Assembly: GCA_023134715.1 (NCBI GenBank)
Contig: JAGLUP010000002.1
Span: forward strand, 160,430-224,429
DNA: 64,000 nucleotides
From: Candidatus Parcubacteria bacterium
GTDB taxonomy: Bacteria; Patescibacteriota; Minisyncoccia; Minisyncoccales; JAGLUP01
Reading direction: 5' to 3'
The position numbers were made by a program, and so were the translations under genes. The notes beneath the pieces are model-generated. The model was given only the letters and a program-made list of their open reading frames with translations, was not told the DNA's origin and ran no database searches. The first letter of the stretch is position 1; each line of letters opens with the position of its first letter. Of this stretch, positions 1,207 to 64,000 are shown in pieces.

Positions 1207-2312
1207 AAATACTTTTTACCGGCGGCGGCACCGGAGGCCATATTTTCCCAATAATTTCTATTGTTAGAGAAATAAGAAGAATAAAACCTAAAAATAAATT
1301 AGAGTTTTTTTACCTTGGTCCAAAAGATGAATTTGCTTCAATTTTTCTTTCTCAAGAAGATATCAAAGTCAAAACAATCTTTGCCGGAAAAATCAGGCGA
1401 TATTTTTCTCTTGAAAACTTTATTGATATTTTTAGAATTTTAATCGGCATTCCTCAAGCATTTCTTTTTATCTTTTTTTCAACACCTGATATTGTCTTCA
1501 GTAAGGGAGGATACGGTTCTTTTCCGGTAGTTTTATCAGCTTGGCTCTTAAGGGTGCCGATTTTCCTTCATGAATCAGACGCGACCCCGGGATTGGTTAA
1601 TAGAATCCTGAATGAATTTGCTTTAGAAATTTTTGTTTCTTTTCCAAGAAATGAATTTTTCCCAGTTGAAAAAATGATTCTTGTTGGAAATCCGATTCGG
1701 AGAGAAATTTTAATGGGCTCAAAAGAAAAAGCAAAAGAATTGTTTAATTTAAGCGAGGAGCGTCCGGTTATTTTGGTTTTAGGGGGAAGTCAGGGCGCTC
1801 AAAAAATTAATGATATATTGTTGATAATTCTGCCGGAAATACTTAAAGAATTTGAAGTAATCCATCAATGCGGCGAAAGAAATTTTAAACAAATAAGAGC
1901 TGAAGCAAATGTAACAATTCCCAGAGGACTTCAAAAACATTATCATATTTTTCCATTTCTAAAAGAATCAGAAATGGCTCATAGCTATCAAGCGGCCGAC
2001 ATTGTAATAAGCAGAGCCGGCTCTGGAAGTATTTTTGAAATTGCCGCTTCTGGAAAACCAAGCATCTTGATTCCGCTTAAAACAGCGGCTCAAAATCATC
2101 AAATTAAAAACGCTTATCAGTATTCTCAAGCAGGAGCCGCAATTGTTATTGAAGAAGAAAATTTAACTTCTCATTTTTTTCTAAAGAAAATAAAATACTT
2201 AATTTCTCATCCTAACGAAGTTGAGGAGATGAAGAAAAAAGCTAAAGAATTTGGTCGACCAAAAGCTGCTAAAATTATTGCTGAATATATTGTGGGATAT
2301 TTATCTAAATAA
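1203..2312 (+). CDS. murG: UDP-GlcNAc:undecaprenyl-PP-MurNAc-pentapeptide GlcNAc transferase MurG
   Basis: MurG makes lipid II by adding GlcNAc to lipid I on the inner membrane face. The 369-residue length is normal. The N-terminal GGGTGGHIFP loop, the HESDATPGLVNR stretch, GGSQGAQKIN at the start of the second Rossmann domain and SRAGSGSIFE are all present (family Q is S in SGSIFE). It overlaps ftsW by 4 bp and is followed after 1 bp by gltX, so the three are probably one operon. Confidence 0.95.
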   Translation: MKILFTGGGTGGHIFPIISIVREIRRIKPKNKLEFFYLGPKDEFASIFLSQEDIKVKTIFAGKIRRYFSLENFIDIFRILIGIPQAFLFIFFSTPDIVFSKGGYGSFPVVLSAWLLRVPIFLHESDATPGLVNRILNEFALEIFVSFPRNEFFPVEKMILVGNPIRREILMGSKEKAKELFNLSEERPVILVLGGSQGAQKINDILLIILPEILKEFEVIHQCGERNFKQIRAEANVTIPRGLQKHYHIFPFLKESEMAHSYQAADIVISRAGSGSIFEIAASGKPSILIPLKTAAQNHQIKNAYQYSQAGAAIVIEEENLTSHFFLKKIKYLISHPNEVEEMKKKAKEFGRPKAAKIIAEYIVGYLSK

Positions 2313-12955: not shown

Positions 12956-14011
12956 CTACACATCCAAAATTTTTCTGAATTTTTCTATCAATTTCTCCTC
13001 TTTTCCTATTATTTTTTTAATTAAACTATTTATTTGAAAATGGAAAAAAATAATTATTCCGAAAAAAGCAGCAGTCAAACTAACTATTCTTATTATCAAA
13101 CTAAAGGCAACACCAATAGTTCCGCTTATCCCTAAAAAAGGGAAAATAAACGCTTGGCTTAATTCAAAACTTCCTAATGCTGCTGGAATAGGGACAAGAA
13201 AAATTAAAGTTATTGCGGTATTTAGGGAAAGTATTTGCTTTATGCCTACGCTGTATCCTAAAAAATAGATGACCAGCCAATAAGTCAACAAAACAAAAAA
13301 AACATCAAAAGCAGCAAGAGAAAAAACTATTATTAATTTTTTCTTTTTTTCTTTAAAAAAATAAGAGATATTTTTTTCTGCGCTATTCACGCCTTGTCCG
13401 ATTTTTCTAATAGCCCTTATTTTATTTAAACCTAAAATATCAATAAAAAAATTAAAAAAGCCCTTTTCTCCAGATGCTCCGTTAAGCGCCTTAGAATAAA
13501 AAATATAAAAAAGCCAAAAAGAAAAAATTACAATAATAGCGATTAAAAAAATAAAAATAGTAGATGGGGTAAAATAACTAAAAAGAAAAAAAAGTCCTAT
13601 AATAAAAAATATAAAAACAACGCTCAAATAAATCACCGCGTCTATTACAGTAGAAGCTGCTGCTTTGTCTAAAGGAACATCTGTTTCTTCTTTTAATAAA
13701 TAAGCTCTAACCGGCTCACCTCCAACAAATATAACCGGAGTTAAATAATTTATGCTGGAACCAATCAGCTTGGTTTTCATTACTTTTAAAAAAGAAATCT
13801 TAGAAGGATGTTGACTCTCTATGATAATTTTCCAACGCAAAGTTGATATTGAAATACCCAATAAACTTATAATTAAAATAAAAAGAAATTTTTCAAGAGA
13901 AAAAGCTGAAACAACTGAAGAAATATTATCCAAGCCAATTCTCTTCAGCACCGCCGCAAACAAAACCAAACCGAAGCAAAGTGAAAATAAAAAAAACAAA
14001 TTCTTCTTCAT
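12956..14011 (-). CDS. Flippase-like (UPF0104/MprF-TM family) membrane protein
   Basis: This 351-residue protein has about eight membrane helices. TPVIFVGGEPVRAYLL and PAALGSFELSQAF match the lysylphosphatidylglycerol-synthase transmembrane (UPF0104) family. Members are thought to flip lipids or lipid-linked molecules; no soluble synthase domain is attached. It begins 28 bp after the hydrolase gene upstream. Confidence 0.8.
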   Translation of the reverse strand: MKKNLFFLFSLCFGLVLFAAVLKRIGLDNISSVVSAFSLEKFLFILIISLLGISISTLRWKIIIESQHPSKISFLKVMKTKLIGSSINYLTPVIFVGGEPVRAYLLKEETDVPLDKAAASTVIDAVIYLSVVFIFFIIGLFFLFSYFTPSTIFIFLIAIIVIFSFWLFYIFYSKALNGASGEKGFFNFFIDILGLNKIRAIRKIGQGVNSAEKNISYFFKEKKKKLIIVFSLAAFDVFFVLLTYWLVIYFLGYSVGIKQILSLNTAITLIFLVPIPAALGSFELSQAFIFPFLGISGTIGVAFSLIIRIVSLTAAFFGIIIFFHFQINSLIKKIIGKEEKLIEKFRKILDV

Positions 14012-38870: not shown

Positions 38871-38948
38871 TATTTCTATTCACCTTTTTCCAACCCACAA
38901 ACTTTTTTATGAGCTCGAAAAAATAAGAAAGAGAAAAAAATTTCTTTT

Positions 38949-39242
38949 CTACCTTGCCCTTAGGAATTCAGGGGTAAGGTAATCTTTAACATAGTCGGTT
39001 AAATCATTGGCGATATCAATTAAAATATGATAGTCCTTCTCTTCTTGATATTTCTCTACGGCCTCAAGTATAACCTGCTTAACCATTCCATGGCTATGTC
39101 CAATTTCTTCAAGTATCCGAGCAGCCATTGCAGTGGCTTCGGTATCCTTCTCTTCAAAAAGTGAATCCACTAGACATTTCTGTAGTTCACTGATGTTTTT
39201 TTCCTTATTTGCTTTACTTATCCGTACAAAAATATTTGTCAT
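38949..39242 (-). CDS. Small helical protein in unit A
   Basis: A 97-residue, mostly helical acidic protein (SKANKEKNISELQKCLVDSL, AARILEEIGHSHG). The SD GGAGG lies 8 bases before the ATG. No family is recognised. It is enclosed by the complementary AAGAAAGAGA/TCTCTTTCTT words and preceded by a conserved leader hairpin. Confidence 0.6.
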   Translation of the reverse strand: MTNIFVRISKANKEKNISELQKCLVDSLFEEKDTEATAMAARILEEIGHSHGMVKQVILEAVEKYQEEKDYHILIDIANDLTDYVKDYLTPEFLRAR

Positions 39243-39269
39243 TGTTTTTACCTCCGCAGGAATAATGTC

Positions 39270-39363
39270 ATTCTCCTGCCGATTGAAATTCCAAAATTCG
39301 CGTAAATTCGTGTCAATATTTGTTTAAATTTGCGATACTTAGAACCTCAATCAGCAGGAGAAT
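39270..39363 (-). promoter_or_regulatory. Leader hairpin before SD (unit A)
   Basis: ATTCTCCTGCCGATTGAAATTC (as two blocks, 39270-39291) is complementary to 39342-39363 over about 20 bp with few mismatches. The loop is about 50 nt. The same stem, with a 7-8 nt loop, occurs at 40436-40487 ahead of the unit B ORF. It ends about 10 bp before the SD. Confidence 0.65.
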
Positions 39364-39365
39364 GT

Positions 39366-39429
39366 TTCTTGCCTCGCCGAAGTATAGATGTATGGCGGGC
39401 TTGCCTCGCCGAAGTTTAAACGAAGGCGG
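39366..39429. repeat. Tandem GC-rich hairpins
   Basis: CTTGCCTCGCCGAAGTTTAA and a near-identical first copy, each ending in GGCGGG, form two tandem hairpins. They lie inside the leader of unit A and are absent from unit B, so they look like a later insertion. Confidence 0.6.
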
Positions 39430-39513
39430 GTTTCTCTTTCTTTTTTTGCCCTCCATAGTTTTAACGAAGGAGGGTTTTTTTTATTTAAAGAGCTGTCTTT
39501 TATTTCTAACAAG

Positions 39514-39577
39514 GAGAGAGCTCTTTTCAAATTTACACAGACCCGACGTGTGTATTTTGTTTAAAAAGAATTCTCTC
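39514..39577. repeat. Inverted repeat upstream of hicBA
   Basis: GAGAGAGCTCTTTT (39514-39527) pairs with AAAAGAATTCTCTC (39563-39577). The equivalent at 40574-40613 has a shorter loop. It lies between the divergent promoters of unit A and the TA operon, where an autoregulator might bind. Confidence 0.6.
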
Positions 39578-39591
39578 GTTGCTAATTTTGC

Positions 39592-39619
39592 TTGACATTG
39601 TGTTTAAAAATTATAGAAT
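39592..39619 (+). promoter_or_regulatory. hicBA-like operon promoter
   Basis: TTGACA (39592-39597) and TAGAAT (39614-39619) are 16 bp apart. The sequence between and after is almost identical to the promoter at 40621-40648. Confidence 0.75.
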
Positions 39620-39654
39620 AAAATTAGATTAAAAAATAATTTAGTTTTAAATTT

Positions 39655-39903
39655 ATGCGTATTTATACTTTTCGAACTATCATTGAACCAGACGAAAATA
39701 ATACTTTTCATGGTTATGTTCCATCTCTTCCTGGCTGTCATACTTGGGGAGAAACAATTGAAGAAACAAAAATAAATTTAAAAGATGCGATAAAATGTCA
39801 TATTCAAGGACTTTTGAAAGATAAAGAGTTTATTCCTCAAGATAAAGAAAGTTTAGAATTTATTCAAACTTTTACTGAAAAAGAACTTGTGAAAGCAATG
39901 TAA
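39655..39903 (+). CDS. HicB-like antitoxin
   Basis: This 82-residue protein is the degenerate-RNase-H-fold half of HicB: FRTIIEPDENNTFHGYVPSL then PGCHTWGETIEETKINLKDA. It has no separate DNA-binding domain. The HicA-like toxin follows after 4 bp; antitoxin-first order is found in some HicBA loci. Confidence 0.85.
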   Translation: MRIYTFRTIIEPDENNTFHGYVPSLPGCHTWGETIEETKINLKDAIKCHIQGLLKDKEFIPQDKESLEFIQTFTEKELVKAM

Positions 39904-39907
39904 TTAT

Positions 39908-40138
39908 ATGCCGAAATTGCCTGTTATAAAATCTAAAGAATTGGCAAAATTTTTAAATAAGATTGGATTTTTTGAATATCATCAAACAGGAAGTCATATT
40001 CAATTTAAGCATTCAGACGGCAGAAGAACAACTATTTCTTTTCATCCTGGGAAAGATATTCCTCGGGGAACGCTTAAGGCGATTCTTAGAGATTTAAAAA
40101 TCTCAAATGAAGAATTTATAAAATTATTAAAAAAATAA
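39908..40138 (+). CDS. HicA-like toxin (mRNA interferase)
   Basis: This 76-residue protein has the double-stranded-RNA-binding-like HicA fold: KLPVIKSKELAKFLNKIGF, GSHIQFKHSDGRRTT and HPGKDIPRGTLKAILRDL. The catalytic His lies in TGSHIQF. Partner of the gene just upstream. Confidence 0.9.
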   Translation: MPKLPVIKSKELAKFLNKIGFFEYHQTGSHIQFKHSDGRRTTISFHPGKDIPRGTLKAILRDLKISNEEFIKLLKK

Positions 40139-40316
40139 TAGGCCAATCCATAGGTCTGTTTTTTTTATTCTGTTTTTTATTTTTTACCCTGAACCCTATG
40201 TGGTTTAGGGCTTCTTCCAACCCACAATTTTACAAAAATGGTCTAAGCCCGTCTTGGACCATTTTTGAAGTTTATGGGCTCGAAAAAATAAAGAAAGAGA
40301 AAATTCATGGTCTAAT

Positions 40317-40409
40317 TTATCGCGCATAATTTTTTAGACCATTTCTTATATTTTCCGTGAATTCTTTAATCTTCTTTGTTATTTCTTCCATCAAAATTAT
40401 TATATCCAT
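40317..40409 (-). CDS. 30-residue small protein in unit B
   Basis: The frame reads MDIIILMEEITKKIKEFTEN and ends NGLKNYAR. The SD AGAGGTG lies six bases before the ATG. It occupies the same place as the ORFs in units A and C. The size is at the limit of prediction; support comes from the SD and conserved context. Confidence 0.45.
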   Translation of the reverse strand: MDIIILMEEITKKIKEFTENIRNGLKNYAR

Positions 40410-40435
40410 TTTTACACCTCTGCGGAAATAATATT

Positions 40436-40487
40436 ATTCTCCTGCTGGTTGGGGTCCAAGATTTAGAACCTCAATCAGCAGGAGAAT
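40436..40487 (-). promoter_or_regulatory. Leader hairpin before SD (unit B)
   Basis: A 12-bp perfect stem ATTCTCCTGCTG/CAGCAGGAGAAT continues with G-U tolerant pairing to a loop of about 8 nt. The outer arms are conserved with 39270-39363, with compensating C/T and G/A changes. Confidence 0.7.
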
Positions 40488-40573
40488 AGCTACAGGCTTG
40501 TCGGTATCTGATACCGACAGACATTTTCTCTTTCTTTTTTTTATTTAAAGAGCTGTTTATTGTTTCTAACAAG

Positions 40574-40613
40574 GAGAGAACTCTTTTCAAATTTTTTTAA
40601 AAAGAATTCTCTC
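40574..40613. repeat. Inverted repeat upstream of RelE-like TA operon
   Basis: GAGAGAACTCTTTT pairs with AAAAGAATTCTCTC (one mismatch) around a 12-nt loop. It equals the element at 39514-39577 and lies between the divergent promoters. Confidence 0.65.
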
Positions 40614-40620
40614 ATTACTA

Positions 40621-40648
40621 TTGACATTATGTTTAAAAATTATAGAAT
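40621..40648 (+). promoter_or_regulatory. TA operon promoter
   Basis: TTGACA (40621-40626), 16 bp, TAGAAT (40643-40648). It is nearly identical to the promoter at 39592 although the TA genes are unrelated. Confidence 0.75.
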
Positions 40649-40672
40649 AAAATAAAGATTAAATTTATATTT

Positions 40673-40879
40673 ATGGCTCAAGCACTATTAGATAATAAAT
40701 TACAAATGTCACGACTTCAAGAAGAAGTAAAAATTCTTCGTTCTTTTGTGATTGGTATTGCCGGAAAAGATAAAGAGGGAGAATATAAGCCAGAATTTGT
40801 CAAAAAAATATTAAAAGCGTCTCAAGAAAAACCAGAACATAGATTTAAAGATAAAAAATCTTTTCTTTCAATGATTTAA
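40673..40879 (+). CDS. Putative antitoxin of RelE-like pair
   Basis: This 68-residue protein (ALLDNKLQMSRLQEEVKILR) is mostly helical and charged with a C-terminal PEHRFKDKKSFLSM tail. Placement 6 bp before a RelE-type toxin makes it the antitoxin by context. Sequence alone does not prove the family. Confidence 0.6.
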   Translation: MAQALLDNKLQMSRLQEEVKILRSFVIGIAGKDKEGEYKPEFVKKILKASQEKPEHRFKDKKSFLSMI

Positions 40880-40885
40880 AAATTC

Positions 40886-41149
40886 ATGATAATTCTTGTT
40901 TATAGTAATTATTTTTTAAAATCTGCGAGAAAGCTTCCTAAAATACAACAAAATAAACTTGCAGAACTTCTTGAAAAATTTCAGAAAAATCCATTTTCTT
41001 CTGAATTACATACTAAATCTCTTACTGGAAAATTAGCTGGATTTTACTCTTTTAGAATTACTCGCGATTGGCGAGTAATTTTTCAATTTCTATCATCTGA
41101 GAAAATACAGCTTATAGATATTGGACACAGAAAAGATATTTACAAATAA
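40886..41149 (+). CDS. RelE/ParE-family toxin
   Basis: The 87-residue protein has the RelE/YoeB-like pattern: SNYFLKSARKLPKIQQNKLA, LTGKLAGFYSFRITRDWRVI and LIDIGHRKDIY. Toxins of this fold cleave mRNA on the ribosome or poison gyrase; which applies here is open. Confidence 0.85.
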   Translation: MIILVYSNYFLKSARKLPKIQQNKLAELLEKFQKNPFSSELHTKSLTGKLAGFYSFRITRDWRVIFQFLSSEKIQLIDIGHRKDIYK

Positions 41150-41219
41150 TATTAACCTTTTTCCAACCCACAAAATCTGTTTTCTGGACTCGAAAAAATA
41201 AAGAAAGAAAAAAAATATT

Positions 41220-41453
41220 TTAGAACCAATCACTGTAATGAGAACCAGTAAAATAAAATGTTCCAACCGCTAAAGCCAACCTTATTATACCTCTCATCAT
41301 ATAGTATGTGCCCTCTGCTGGTATTTCTTCCATACAAAAACCAGATACTATATCCATACATCCGATTGCAAATAAATATAAACCTACTATGCTAAATAGT
41401 ACCAAAAATAGAACCTTAGCTATAGTCATTAAATATGTTTTTACACGTTCCAT
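41220..41453 (-). CDS. Small membrane protein in unit C
   Basis: The 77-residue protein has two hydrophobic helices (about 8-32 and 52-68) linked by DIVSGFCMEEIPAEG. The SD AAGGTGA precedes the ATG by eight bases. No family is recognised. Confidence 0.55.
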   Translation of the reverse strand: MERVKTYLMTIAKVLFLVLFSIVGLYLFAIGCMDIVSGFCMEEIPAEGTYYMMRGIIRLALAVGTFYFTGSHYSDWF

Positions 41454-41757
41454 TTTAGTTTCACCTTATATATATCTGCCGTCACTAGAAAACCTGACAT
41501 TATCAGATTTCTTCAAGGCATTAAACTGACAACTAATTATTTAATTATCAATTCACTGCCCTGAAGATTTTCTCTTTCTTTTTTGCCCGCCTAATTGTCC
41601 GACCCGCCTGCATCGTTATGCGAAGCATTGCGGGCAGGAGGACTTTTGACGGATTATTTTATTCAAAGAGCTGTTATTAAAGAAAAACAGACAACTATGG
41701 AGAGAGGTCTGTTTTTCGTGAATAATTAAAATCAGTTTCTCTCTCCTAACATTTTTA

Positions 41758-41785
41758 ATTATACCATAAAAGCAAAATTTGTCAA
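41758..41785 (-). promoter_or_regulatory. Promoter of unit C
   Basis: TTGACA (41780-41785 on the minus strand) and TATAAT (41758-41763) are 16 bp apart, a near-consensus sigma70 promoter pointing towards 41453. Confidence 0.8.
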
Positions 41786-63504: not shown

Positions 63505-63618
63505 ATAGTGGCAGCTACCTACTTTCGCAGGAAAACCTACTATCATCGGCCTTAGAGTATTTCACTTCTGAGTTCGAAATGGGATCAGGTGGGACAACTC
63601 CAGTATAGCCGCCACTAC
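63505..63618 (-). rRNA. rrf: 5S ribosomal RNA
   Basis: The minus strand has TAGTGGCGGCTATACTGG, then CCCATTTCGAACTCAGAAG and a closing GCCACTA. The ends pair over at least seven bases. Ends are approximate. Confidence 0.93.
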
Positions 63619-63654
63619 AACGTCCTTTTTAAAAAAGTAATTTTATTGTGCGCT

Positions 63655-64000
<346 letters not shown>

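What the first reader, a model, noticed from the sequence alone, without database searches (positions are those of the whole stretch)
38890..41785. Three copies of a structured leader/small-ORF transcription unit
Units A, B and C share, in order on the minus strand, ACAGCTCTTTxAATAA, AAAGAAAGAGA, a tiny ORF, TCTCTTTCTTT, and GAGxCCA...TGTGGGTTGG. The 5' and 3' words are complementary, so the RNA could close as a panhandle around the ORF. The ORFs (97, 30 and 77 residues) are unrelated, so selection seems to be on the RNA frame, not the protein. Leaders are 145-290 nt long. This could be a new RNA family, a regulatory leader, or a mobile cassette.
Basis: partly seen in the sequence, partly recalled or inferred. 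Interest (0 to 1): 0.8.

Follow-up and report, generated by a model that had tools for sequence, protein, structure and literature searches.

The report
rRNA-style RNA frame around small genes
In a group of very small, mostly uncultured bacteria (Patescibacteria), many short unrelated genes are each wrapped in the same folded RNA frame, which begins with the RNA-polymerase signal normally used for ribosomal RNA and closes into a long helix around the gene; no known RNA family matches it.

Summary
The three units belong to 11 in this genome, all on contig C5. Covariance models of the 3' hairpin find relatives in 34 further genomes of the order and in further families of the class. The shared frame is: strong promoter; boxA (rRNA-type antitermination signal; exact in the 16S leaders of two unit-bearing genomes); 5' panhandle strand; a strong hairpin P2, often carrying the Shine-Dalgarno; a short ORF; 3' panhandle strand; conserved hairpin P3. 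The panhandle and P3 covary. P2 stems stay paired with different sequences. Rfam has no match. ORFs are real but mostly unrelated. At one site (rplU-recR) nine genomes carry P3 hairpins and unrelated cargo, while 21 of 40 have almost no gap. Best mechanism: Nus factors bound at boxA hold the 5' strand by RNA polymerase until the 3' strand emerges, as for rRNA leader-trailer helices; the helix then protects the message or releases it through RNase III, and P2 gates translation. Structure is well supported; mechanism is inferred. How cargo is exchanged is unknown.

The parts
38881..39577 (-). Unit A, whole (leader hairpin to P3)
39513..39577 (-). Unit A upstream leader hairpin GAGAGAATTCTTTT/AAAAGAGCTCTCTC (own-genome addition; 93% repeat of that of unit B)
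39481..39496 (-). Unit A boxA (ACAGCTCTTTAAATAA)
   Evidence: same type of motif in 16S leaders of G004 and G110
39431..39443 (-). Unit A panhandle 5' strand AAAGAAAGAGAAA
39269..39364 (-). Unit A P2 hairpin (ATTCTCCTGC...CGGCAGGAGAAT), just upstream of the Shine-Dalgarno
   Evidence: I1; same type as the P2 hairpins folded
38949..39242 (-). Unit A cargo ORF, 97 aa, no significant family
38924..38936 (-). Unit A panhandle 3' strand TTTCTCTTTCTTA
38881..38925 (-). Unit A P3 hairpin (TTTTTTCGAGCTCATAAA..TTTGTGGGTTGGAAAAAG)
   Evidence: 68.4 bits, the hit includes the 3' strand
40208..40612 (-). Unit B, whole
40573..40612 (-). Unit B upstream leader hairpin
40541..40556 (-). Unit B boxA (ACAGCTCTTTAAATAA)
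40525..40537 (-). Unit B panhandle 5' strand
40435..40488 (-). Unit B P2 hairpin, -31.2 kcal/mol, z -9
   Evidence: (I22)
40317..40409 (-). Unit B cargo ORF, 30 aa
40290..40302 (-). Unit B panhandle 3' strand TTTCTCTTTCTTT
40208..40289 (-). Unit B P3 hairpin with a long variable apical extension
41154..41785 (-). Unit C, whole, with its promoter
41758..41785 (-). Unit C promoter TTGACA / TATAAT
   Evidence: same arrangement in 13 units of other genomes
41682..41746 (-). Unit C attenuator-like leader: GGAGAG can pair with the loop of the terminator-like hairpin GAAAAACAGAC..GTCTGTTTTTC (own-genome addition)
41659..41674 (-). Unit C boxA (ACAGCTCTTTGAATAA)
41569..41581 (-). Unit C panhandle 5' strand
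41478..41567 (-). Unit C second leader type (AATCTTCAGGGCAGTG...), shared with two other units of this genome that carry unrelated ORFs
41220..41453 (-). Unit C cargo ORF, 77 aa, membrane-like
41200..41212 (-). Unit C panhandle 3' strand TTTTTCTTTCTTT (one G-U pair)
41154..41199 (-). Unit C P3 hairpin
39655..40138 (+). HicB/HicA toxin-antitoxin pair, divergent from unit A; neighbour, not part of the frame
40673..41149 (+). DUF2683 protein plus RelE/YoeB-like toxin, divergent from unit B; neighbour, not part of the frame

Best explanation
Each unit is a small protein-coding gene whose transcript has a conserved, rRNA-precursor-like frame. Shown by sequence comparison: boxA near the 5' end; a strand just downstream of boxA that pairs across the ORF with a strand just after the stop codon; a strong hairpin P2 next to the start codon, often containing the Shine-Dalgarno; a conserved hairpin P3 after the panhandle; repetition of the whole frame around different ORFs, singly or in tandem. 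Inferred: NusB/S10 bind boxA on the nascent RNA and stay with RNA polymerase, so the 5' strand is held at the exit channel until the 3' strand emerges, as proposed for rRNA leader-trailer helices. The closed helix and P3 then protect the small message or, in tandem arrays, let RNase III release each one; P2 sets translation. The frame works as a standard expression chassis whose cargo differs between genomes at the same site.
For: Eleven units in this genome. P3 model hits in 35 of 247 genomes of the order and 22 of 383 sampled in the class. P3: 9 of 19 pairs change on both sides, 0 of 500 shuffles as good, slid controls far worse. Panhandle: cognate strands pair better than swapped ones, 0 of 5000 permutations, z -5.7, 42 units; strand sequences change together, e.g. 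AAAGAAAGAGAAA here, AAAGGAAGGGAAA in G110, GGGAAAGTT in G356. P2: each copy folds strongly (z -5 to -11) with different stems. boxA: strict motif in 8 of 11 own and 16 of 86 other units, against about 0.1 and 0.4 in shuffles and none on the reverse strand; identical boxA in the 16S leaders of G004 and G110. NusB and RNase III genes found in G000, G017, G110 and G391. Tandem array in G017 repeats the frame per cistron. The rRNA analogy is from PMC10250234.
Against: No expression or binding data. Only 31 of 86 other-genome hits have a clear boxA upstream, so P3 also occurs without boxA or panhandle. G119 has a full unit but no NusB or RNase III hit at 95% completeness. Panhandle strands are purine/pyrimidine-rich, so single copies pair well by chance; only the pooled test is decisive (15 of 42 rank in the best tenth). 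In this genome the own 16S leader has a boxA with one mismatch, and hairpins are inserted between boxA and the 5' strand in several units, against the tight spacing seen in E. coli rRNA.
Confidence: 0.55

Rival explanations
1. Mobile gene cassettes. The conserved 3' and 5' frame is chiefly a DNA recombination site, integron-like, and the RNA folds are its by-product.
For: Same rplU-recR site holds unrelated cargo in 9 genomes and is nearly empty in 21 of 40, including genus-mates of an occupied genome. Tandem arrays of unrelated ORFs. Leader types are shared between unrelated ORFs.
Against: No attC core (RYYYAAC/GTTRRRY) conserved in P3; panhandle strands covary within a unit across the ORF, which a recombination site does not require; most units have their own promoter; no target duplication seen on comparing occupied and empty sites; no recombinase noticed among the neighbouring genes read.
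Confidence: 0.2
2. A regulon of small-protein mRNAs read by one trans-acting factor or ligand (riboswitch-like or protein-binding), with P2 as the sensor that hides the Shine-Dalgarno and P3 and panhandle as accessory stability elements; boxA is secondary.
For: P2 has conserved inner motifs (GAAUUG..AGCUC or CAGAGAG..UGCCUG) with variable covarying stems, and its 3' strand often contains GGTGA/GGAGG. BoxA itself can repress translation outside rRNA (PMC5725501).
Against: Leader types differ within one genome; cargo has no common pathway, which is unusual for a ligand switch.
Confidence: 0.2
3. A non-coding RNA family; the ORFs are incidental.
For: ORFs in the window are unrelated and short; RNA elements are better conserved than proteins.
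Against: Cargo homologues at 40% identity in two genomes, DUF1523 above cut-off, good ribosome-binding sites and ORFs filling the space between the strands.
Confidence: 0.04
4. Chance words in AT-rich DNA plus a recent local duplication.
For: Units A and B share a 93% identical 60-nt leader block; several words are low in complexity.
Against: Recurrence in many genera with compensatory changes.
Confidence: 0.01

Closest known systems
Bacterial rRNA operon leader: boxA plus leader-trailer helix (E. coli rrn; PMC10250234)
   Same: boxA near the 5' end (identical motif in 16S leaders of G004 and G110), then a strand shortly downstream that pairs with a strand after the RNA body; repeated per cistron in tandem arrays as before 16S and 23S.
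   Different: The body is a small ORF, not rRNA; P2 and P3 hairpins are new; many copies per genome with different cargo.
BoxA-regulated mRNAs such as suhB (PMC5725501)
   Same: boxA in the 5' UTR of a protein-coding gene, close to the ribosome-binding region.
   Different: suhB is not described there as having a panhandle or 3' hairpin; here boxA starts a multi-part frame shared by unrelated genes.
Integron gene cassettes (from general knowledge)
   Same: Arrays of small unrelated ORFs separated by a conserved palindromic element.
   Different: No attC core, own promoters in most units, frame on both sides of the ORF, no integrase noticed.
Rfam families, release 15
   Same: None; best sub-threshold hits in the window are terminator-like leaders well below cut-off.
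   Different: No match to the units at gathering threshold in the window or in ten relatives.

Membership tests
rRNA-type boxA antitermination element | GYTCTTTRA-type boxA in the transcript leader | tested here: met
   10 of 11 own and 31 of 86 other-genome units, strongly above shuffles
rRNA-type boxA antitermination element | Same motif in the organism's own rRNA leader | tested here: inconclusive
   exact in G004 and G110, within 2 mismatches in G000, G087 and G391, not seen in 6 other readable leaders
rRNA-type boxA antitermination element | NusB encoded in the genome | tested here: inconclusive
   4 of 5 unit-bearing genomes; not found in G119
rRNA-type boxA antitermination element | NusB/S10 bind it and RNA polymerase becomes termination-resistant | not testable with these tools
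   needs binding and transcription assays
rRNA leader-trailer helix | Complementary strands flanking the RNA body, conserved by covariation | tested here: met
   0 of 5000 permutations
rRNA leader-trailer helix | Body is 16S or 23S rRNA | tested here: not met
   the body is a short ORF
Integron attC cassette | RYYYAAC/GTTRRRY core in the palindrome | tested here: not met
   P3 alignment
Integron attC cassette | Linked IntI integrase | not tested
   no dedicated search for integrases was made
Intrinsic terminator | G+C-rich hairpin followed by a U run | tested here: not met
   P3 has U-rich 5' and A-rich 3' strands, no U run after it, and often a separate terminator or a further unit downstream
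Any Rfam family | Score at or above the gathering threshold | tested here: not met

The most novel reading that the evidence does not exclude
Patescibacteria use an rRNA-style transcription and folding system (boxA, leader-trailer helix, dedicated end hairpins) as a universal mRNA chassis for a changing set of small accessory proteins, and have a way, still unknown, to swap cargo in and out of the chassis at fixed chromosomal sites.
Probability: 0.35. Interest if true: 0.92.

Novelty: categorically new. Interest (0 to 1): 0.8.

Why it matters
It is an RNA family absent from Rfam, found in dozens of Patescibacteria genomes, that combines the rRNA antitermination signal with a panhandle around protein-coding genes. 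If the mechanism holds, Nus-factor-guided co-transcriptional RNA folding is not only for rRNA but a general expression device. It also points to a pool of small, largely unannotated, often membrane-like or secreted-looking proteins in these bacteria, and gives a sequence handle (the P3 model) to find them.

Tried and rejected
A viral contig with an exact 20-mer match is a chance hit inside a phage tape-measure gene. The 20-mer pattern with 3 mismatches was too loose in relatives, about as frequent as its reversed control. The stricter P3 pattern found no viral contig and only two MAGs, whose contig lengths equal those of G114 and G113. A first swap test of the panhandle cut the 3' strands too short through a faulty pattern; the corrected test is. 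Rfam at lax threshold in the window gave only sub-threshold hits. Self-splicing introns were dropped for lack of any Rfam match. Target-site duplications were looked for by comparing occupied and empty rplU-recR sites and none could be defined. PHROGs gave no phage family for six cargo proteins. Literature searches found no description of this element; subscription journals and preprints are not covered.
Full report
Observation. The three units are present on the minus strand at the stated place. Small corrections: the 3' pyrimidine strand differs slightly in A and C, copy A reads GAGCTCA, and TGTGGGTTGG pairs with the neighbouring GAGxCCA rather than with the 5' word. Two toxin-antitoxin pairs on the plus strand (HicBA, and a DUF2683 protein with a RelE/YoeB-like toxin) lie between the units; they are neighbours, not parts of the frame.

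Copies in the own genome. Pattern searches of the 762-kb genome found 11 copies of the 3' element, all on contig C5 (224 kb), none on the other contigs. Reading C5 shows the same order each time: promoter or end of the previous unit, boxA, AAAGAAAGAGAAA, a structured leader, a Shine-Dalgarno, a short ORF, TTTCTCTTTCTTT (or a G-U pairing variant), and the hairpin CGAGCYCA..TGTGGGTTGG. Some units stand in tandem, each with its own boxA. Leader types X (ATTCTCCTGC hairpin) and Y (AATCTTCAGGGCAGTG) are each shared by unrelated ORFs. In this genome five units, and a sixth copy (L038 about 13420-13710) that has no P3, also carry a terminator-like hairpin upstream of boxA whose loop can pair with GGAGAG near the 5' end; the sixth copy has a different stem that is still paired.

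Relatives. A covariance model of the 3' hairpin (R1) found 22 other genomes of the order. A better model from 38 sequences (R2) found 34 others (35 of 247 genomes in all) and 22 of 383 genomes sampled from the class, including families outside the order; at the threshold used, less than one false genome is expected per search, though E-values from the short calibration are rough. Two hits by exact pattern carry public titles, both 'Patescibacteria group bacterium'. P3 pairs covary: 9 of 19 pairs changed on both sides, 0 of 500 shuffles as good, and sliding the pairing by 1-3 columns destroys it.

Panhandle. In other genera the strand after boxA and the strand after the ORF have different but still complementary sequences: GGGGAAGGGAA/TTCCCTTTCCCC type in G017, G090 and G119, AAAGGAAGGGAAA/TTTCCCTTCCTTT in G110, GAAAAAAGGGAAGGAAA in G391, AAAAAAGGGAAAGTT in G356. 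Because the strands are low in complexity, a swap control was used: cognate strands pair better than strands swapped among units, sum -694 against -593 +/- 18 kcal/mol, 0 of 5000 permutations.

P2. Next to the start codon lies a hairpin of about 50 nt which folds strongly in every copy tested (-24 to -38 kcal/mol, z -5 to -11), with conserved inner motifs and stems that differ in sequence but stay paired. In most of the other-genome copies the 3' strand contains a Shine-Dalgarno-like GGTGA or GGAGG (read), so it could hide the ribosome-binding site; that function is inferred.

boxA. The 5' word resembles the published boxA consensus GYTCTTTAANA (PMC5725501); many other-genome copies (GTTCTTTAAAA) match it exactly. 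It occurs in the right place far above shuffled controls, typically 14-20 nt after a TTGACA/TATAAT promoter. The 16S leaders of G004 and G110 contain the identical AGTTCTTTGAAA; those of G000, G087 and G391 a close variant; six other readable leaders none. NusB and RNase III genes lie close together in G000, G017, G110 and G391 but were not found in G119. About two thirds of the P3 hits in other genomes lack a clear boxA upstream, so P3 is the most widespread part and the full frame is a subset.

Cargo. ORFs range from 29 to 234 aa. Most have no family. DUF1523 scores above the Pfam cut-off and DUF244 at it. Many begin with a hydrophobic stretch. One pair of homologues at 40% identity was found in units of G000 and G005, and a weaker pair in G426 and G464, so at least these proteins are real.

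Same site, different cargo. Nine genomes have P3 hits between rplU and recR (G000, G017, G046, G056, G058, G086, G110, G113, G114; full boxA-led units are clear in five of the other genomes) with unrelated ORFs; among 40 genomes in which both genes could be placed, 21 have a gap of at most 140 nt with no unit, and 10 have a longer gap without a P3 hit. G110 is occupied while its genus-mates G004 and G049 are not. Another unit site of the own genome has the same neighbouring genes in G058, again with different cargo. How units come and go is unknown.

Mechanism. In E. coli rRNA, boxA-bound Nus factors are proposed to keep the leader strand at the RNA-polymerase exit so that it pairs with the trailer when that emerges, and a helix of more than 17 bp is needed for active 30S subunits (PMC10250234). 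The unit anatomy has the same parts in the same order, around an ORF. I therefore favour an rRNA-style folding and antitermination frame used as a chassis for small messages. Shown: anatomy, covariation, recurrence, boxA identity with rRNA in two genomes. Inferred: Nus binding, helix formation during transcription, protection or RNase III release, translation control by P2. It works like an rRNA leader-trailer system but is not a member of it, since the body is not rRNA.

Limits. No transcript data; genomes are mostly fragmented assemblies; the literature search covers open-licence papers only.

Noticed in passing
L162 (G113) about 200-834 and L259 (G017) about 1220-1893, minus strand: Between unit and recR both genomes carry a second transcript-like region with its own promoter and boxA-like AGTWCKTTGAAAATT, the shared blocks GGAGAGAATTGTTCTGAAAAT and TCAGGATAGTCCTCTCC, and no obvious ORF; not in Rfam, not tmRNA. 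Possibly a non-coding RNA using the same type of leader.
   Followed up: partly
G000 C5:146771-148284 (+) and window 63506-64000 (-): 16S lies about 76 kb from, and on the opposite strand to, a 23S 3' end and 5S at the contig end, so the rRNA genes may be unlinked. Whether another 23S follows the 16S was not checked.
   Followed up: no
window 39475-39624 and 40535-40653: A 93-97% identical block spans the start of units A and B and the divergent promoters of two unrelated toxin-antitoxin pairs (HicBA and RelE/YoeB-like), as if unit leader and TA promoter had been copied together.
   Followed up: partly
G119 (single 661-kb contig): A unit-bearing genome estimated 95% complete has no hit for NusB (PF01029) or RNase III (PF14622).
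   Followed up: no
L038 13420-13710 (G000): A promoter, attenuator-like hairpin and boxA unit with a 45-aa ORF but no P3, just upstream of two complete units; a possible degenerate or minimal unit.
   Followed up: partly
L146 (G471) about 950-1530: A P3-like hairpin follows a long GC-rich, apparently structured region without a clear small ORF; no Rfam match.
   Followed up: no
L114 (G052) 2010-2250: Small ORF with a P3 hairpin but a short leader without boxA or panhandle, showing that P3 can occur alone.
   Followed up: no
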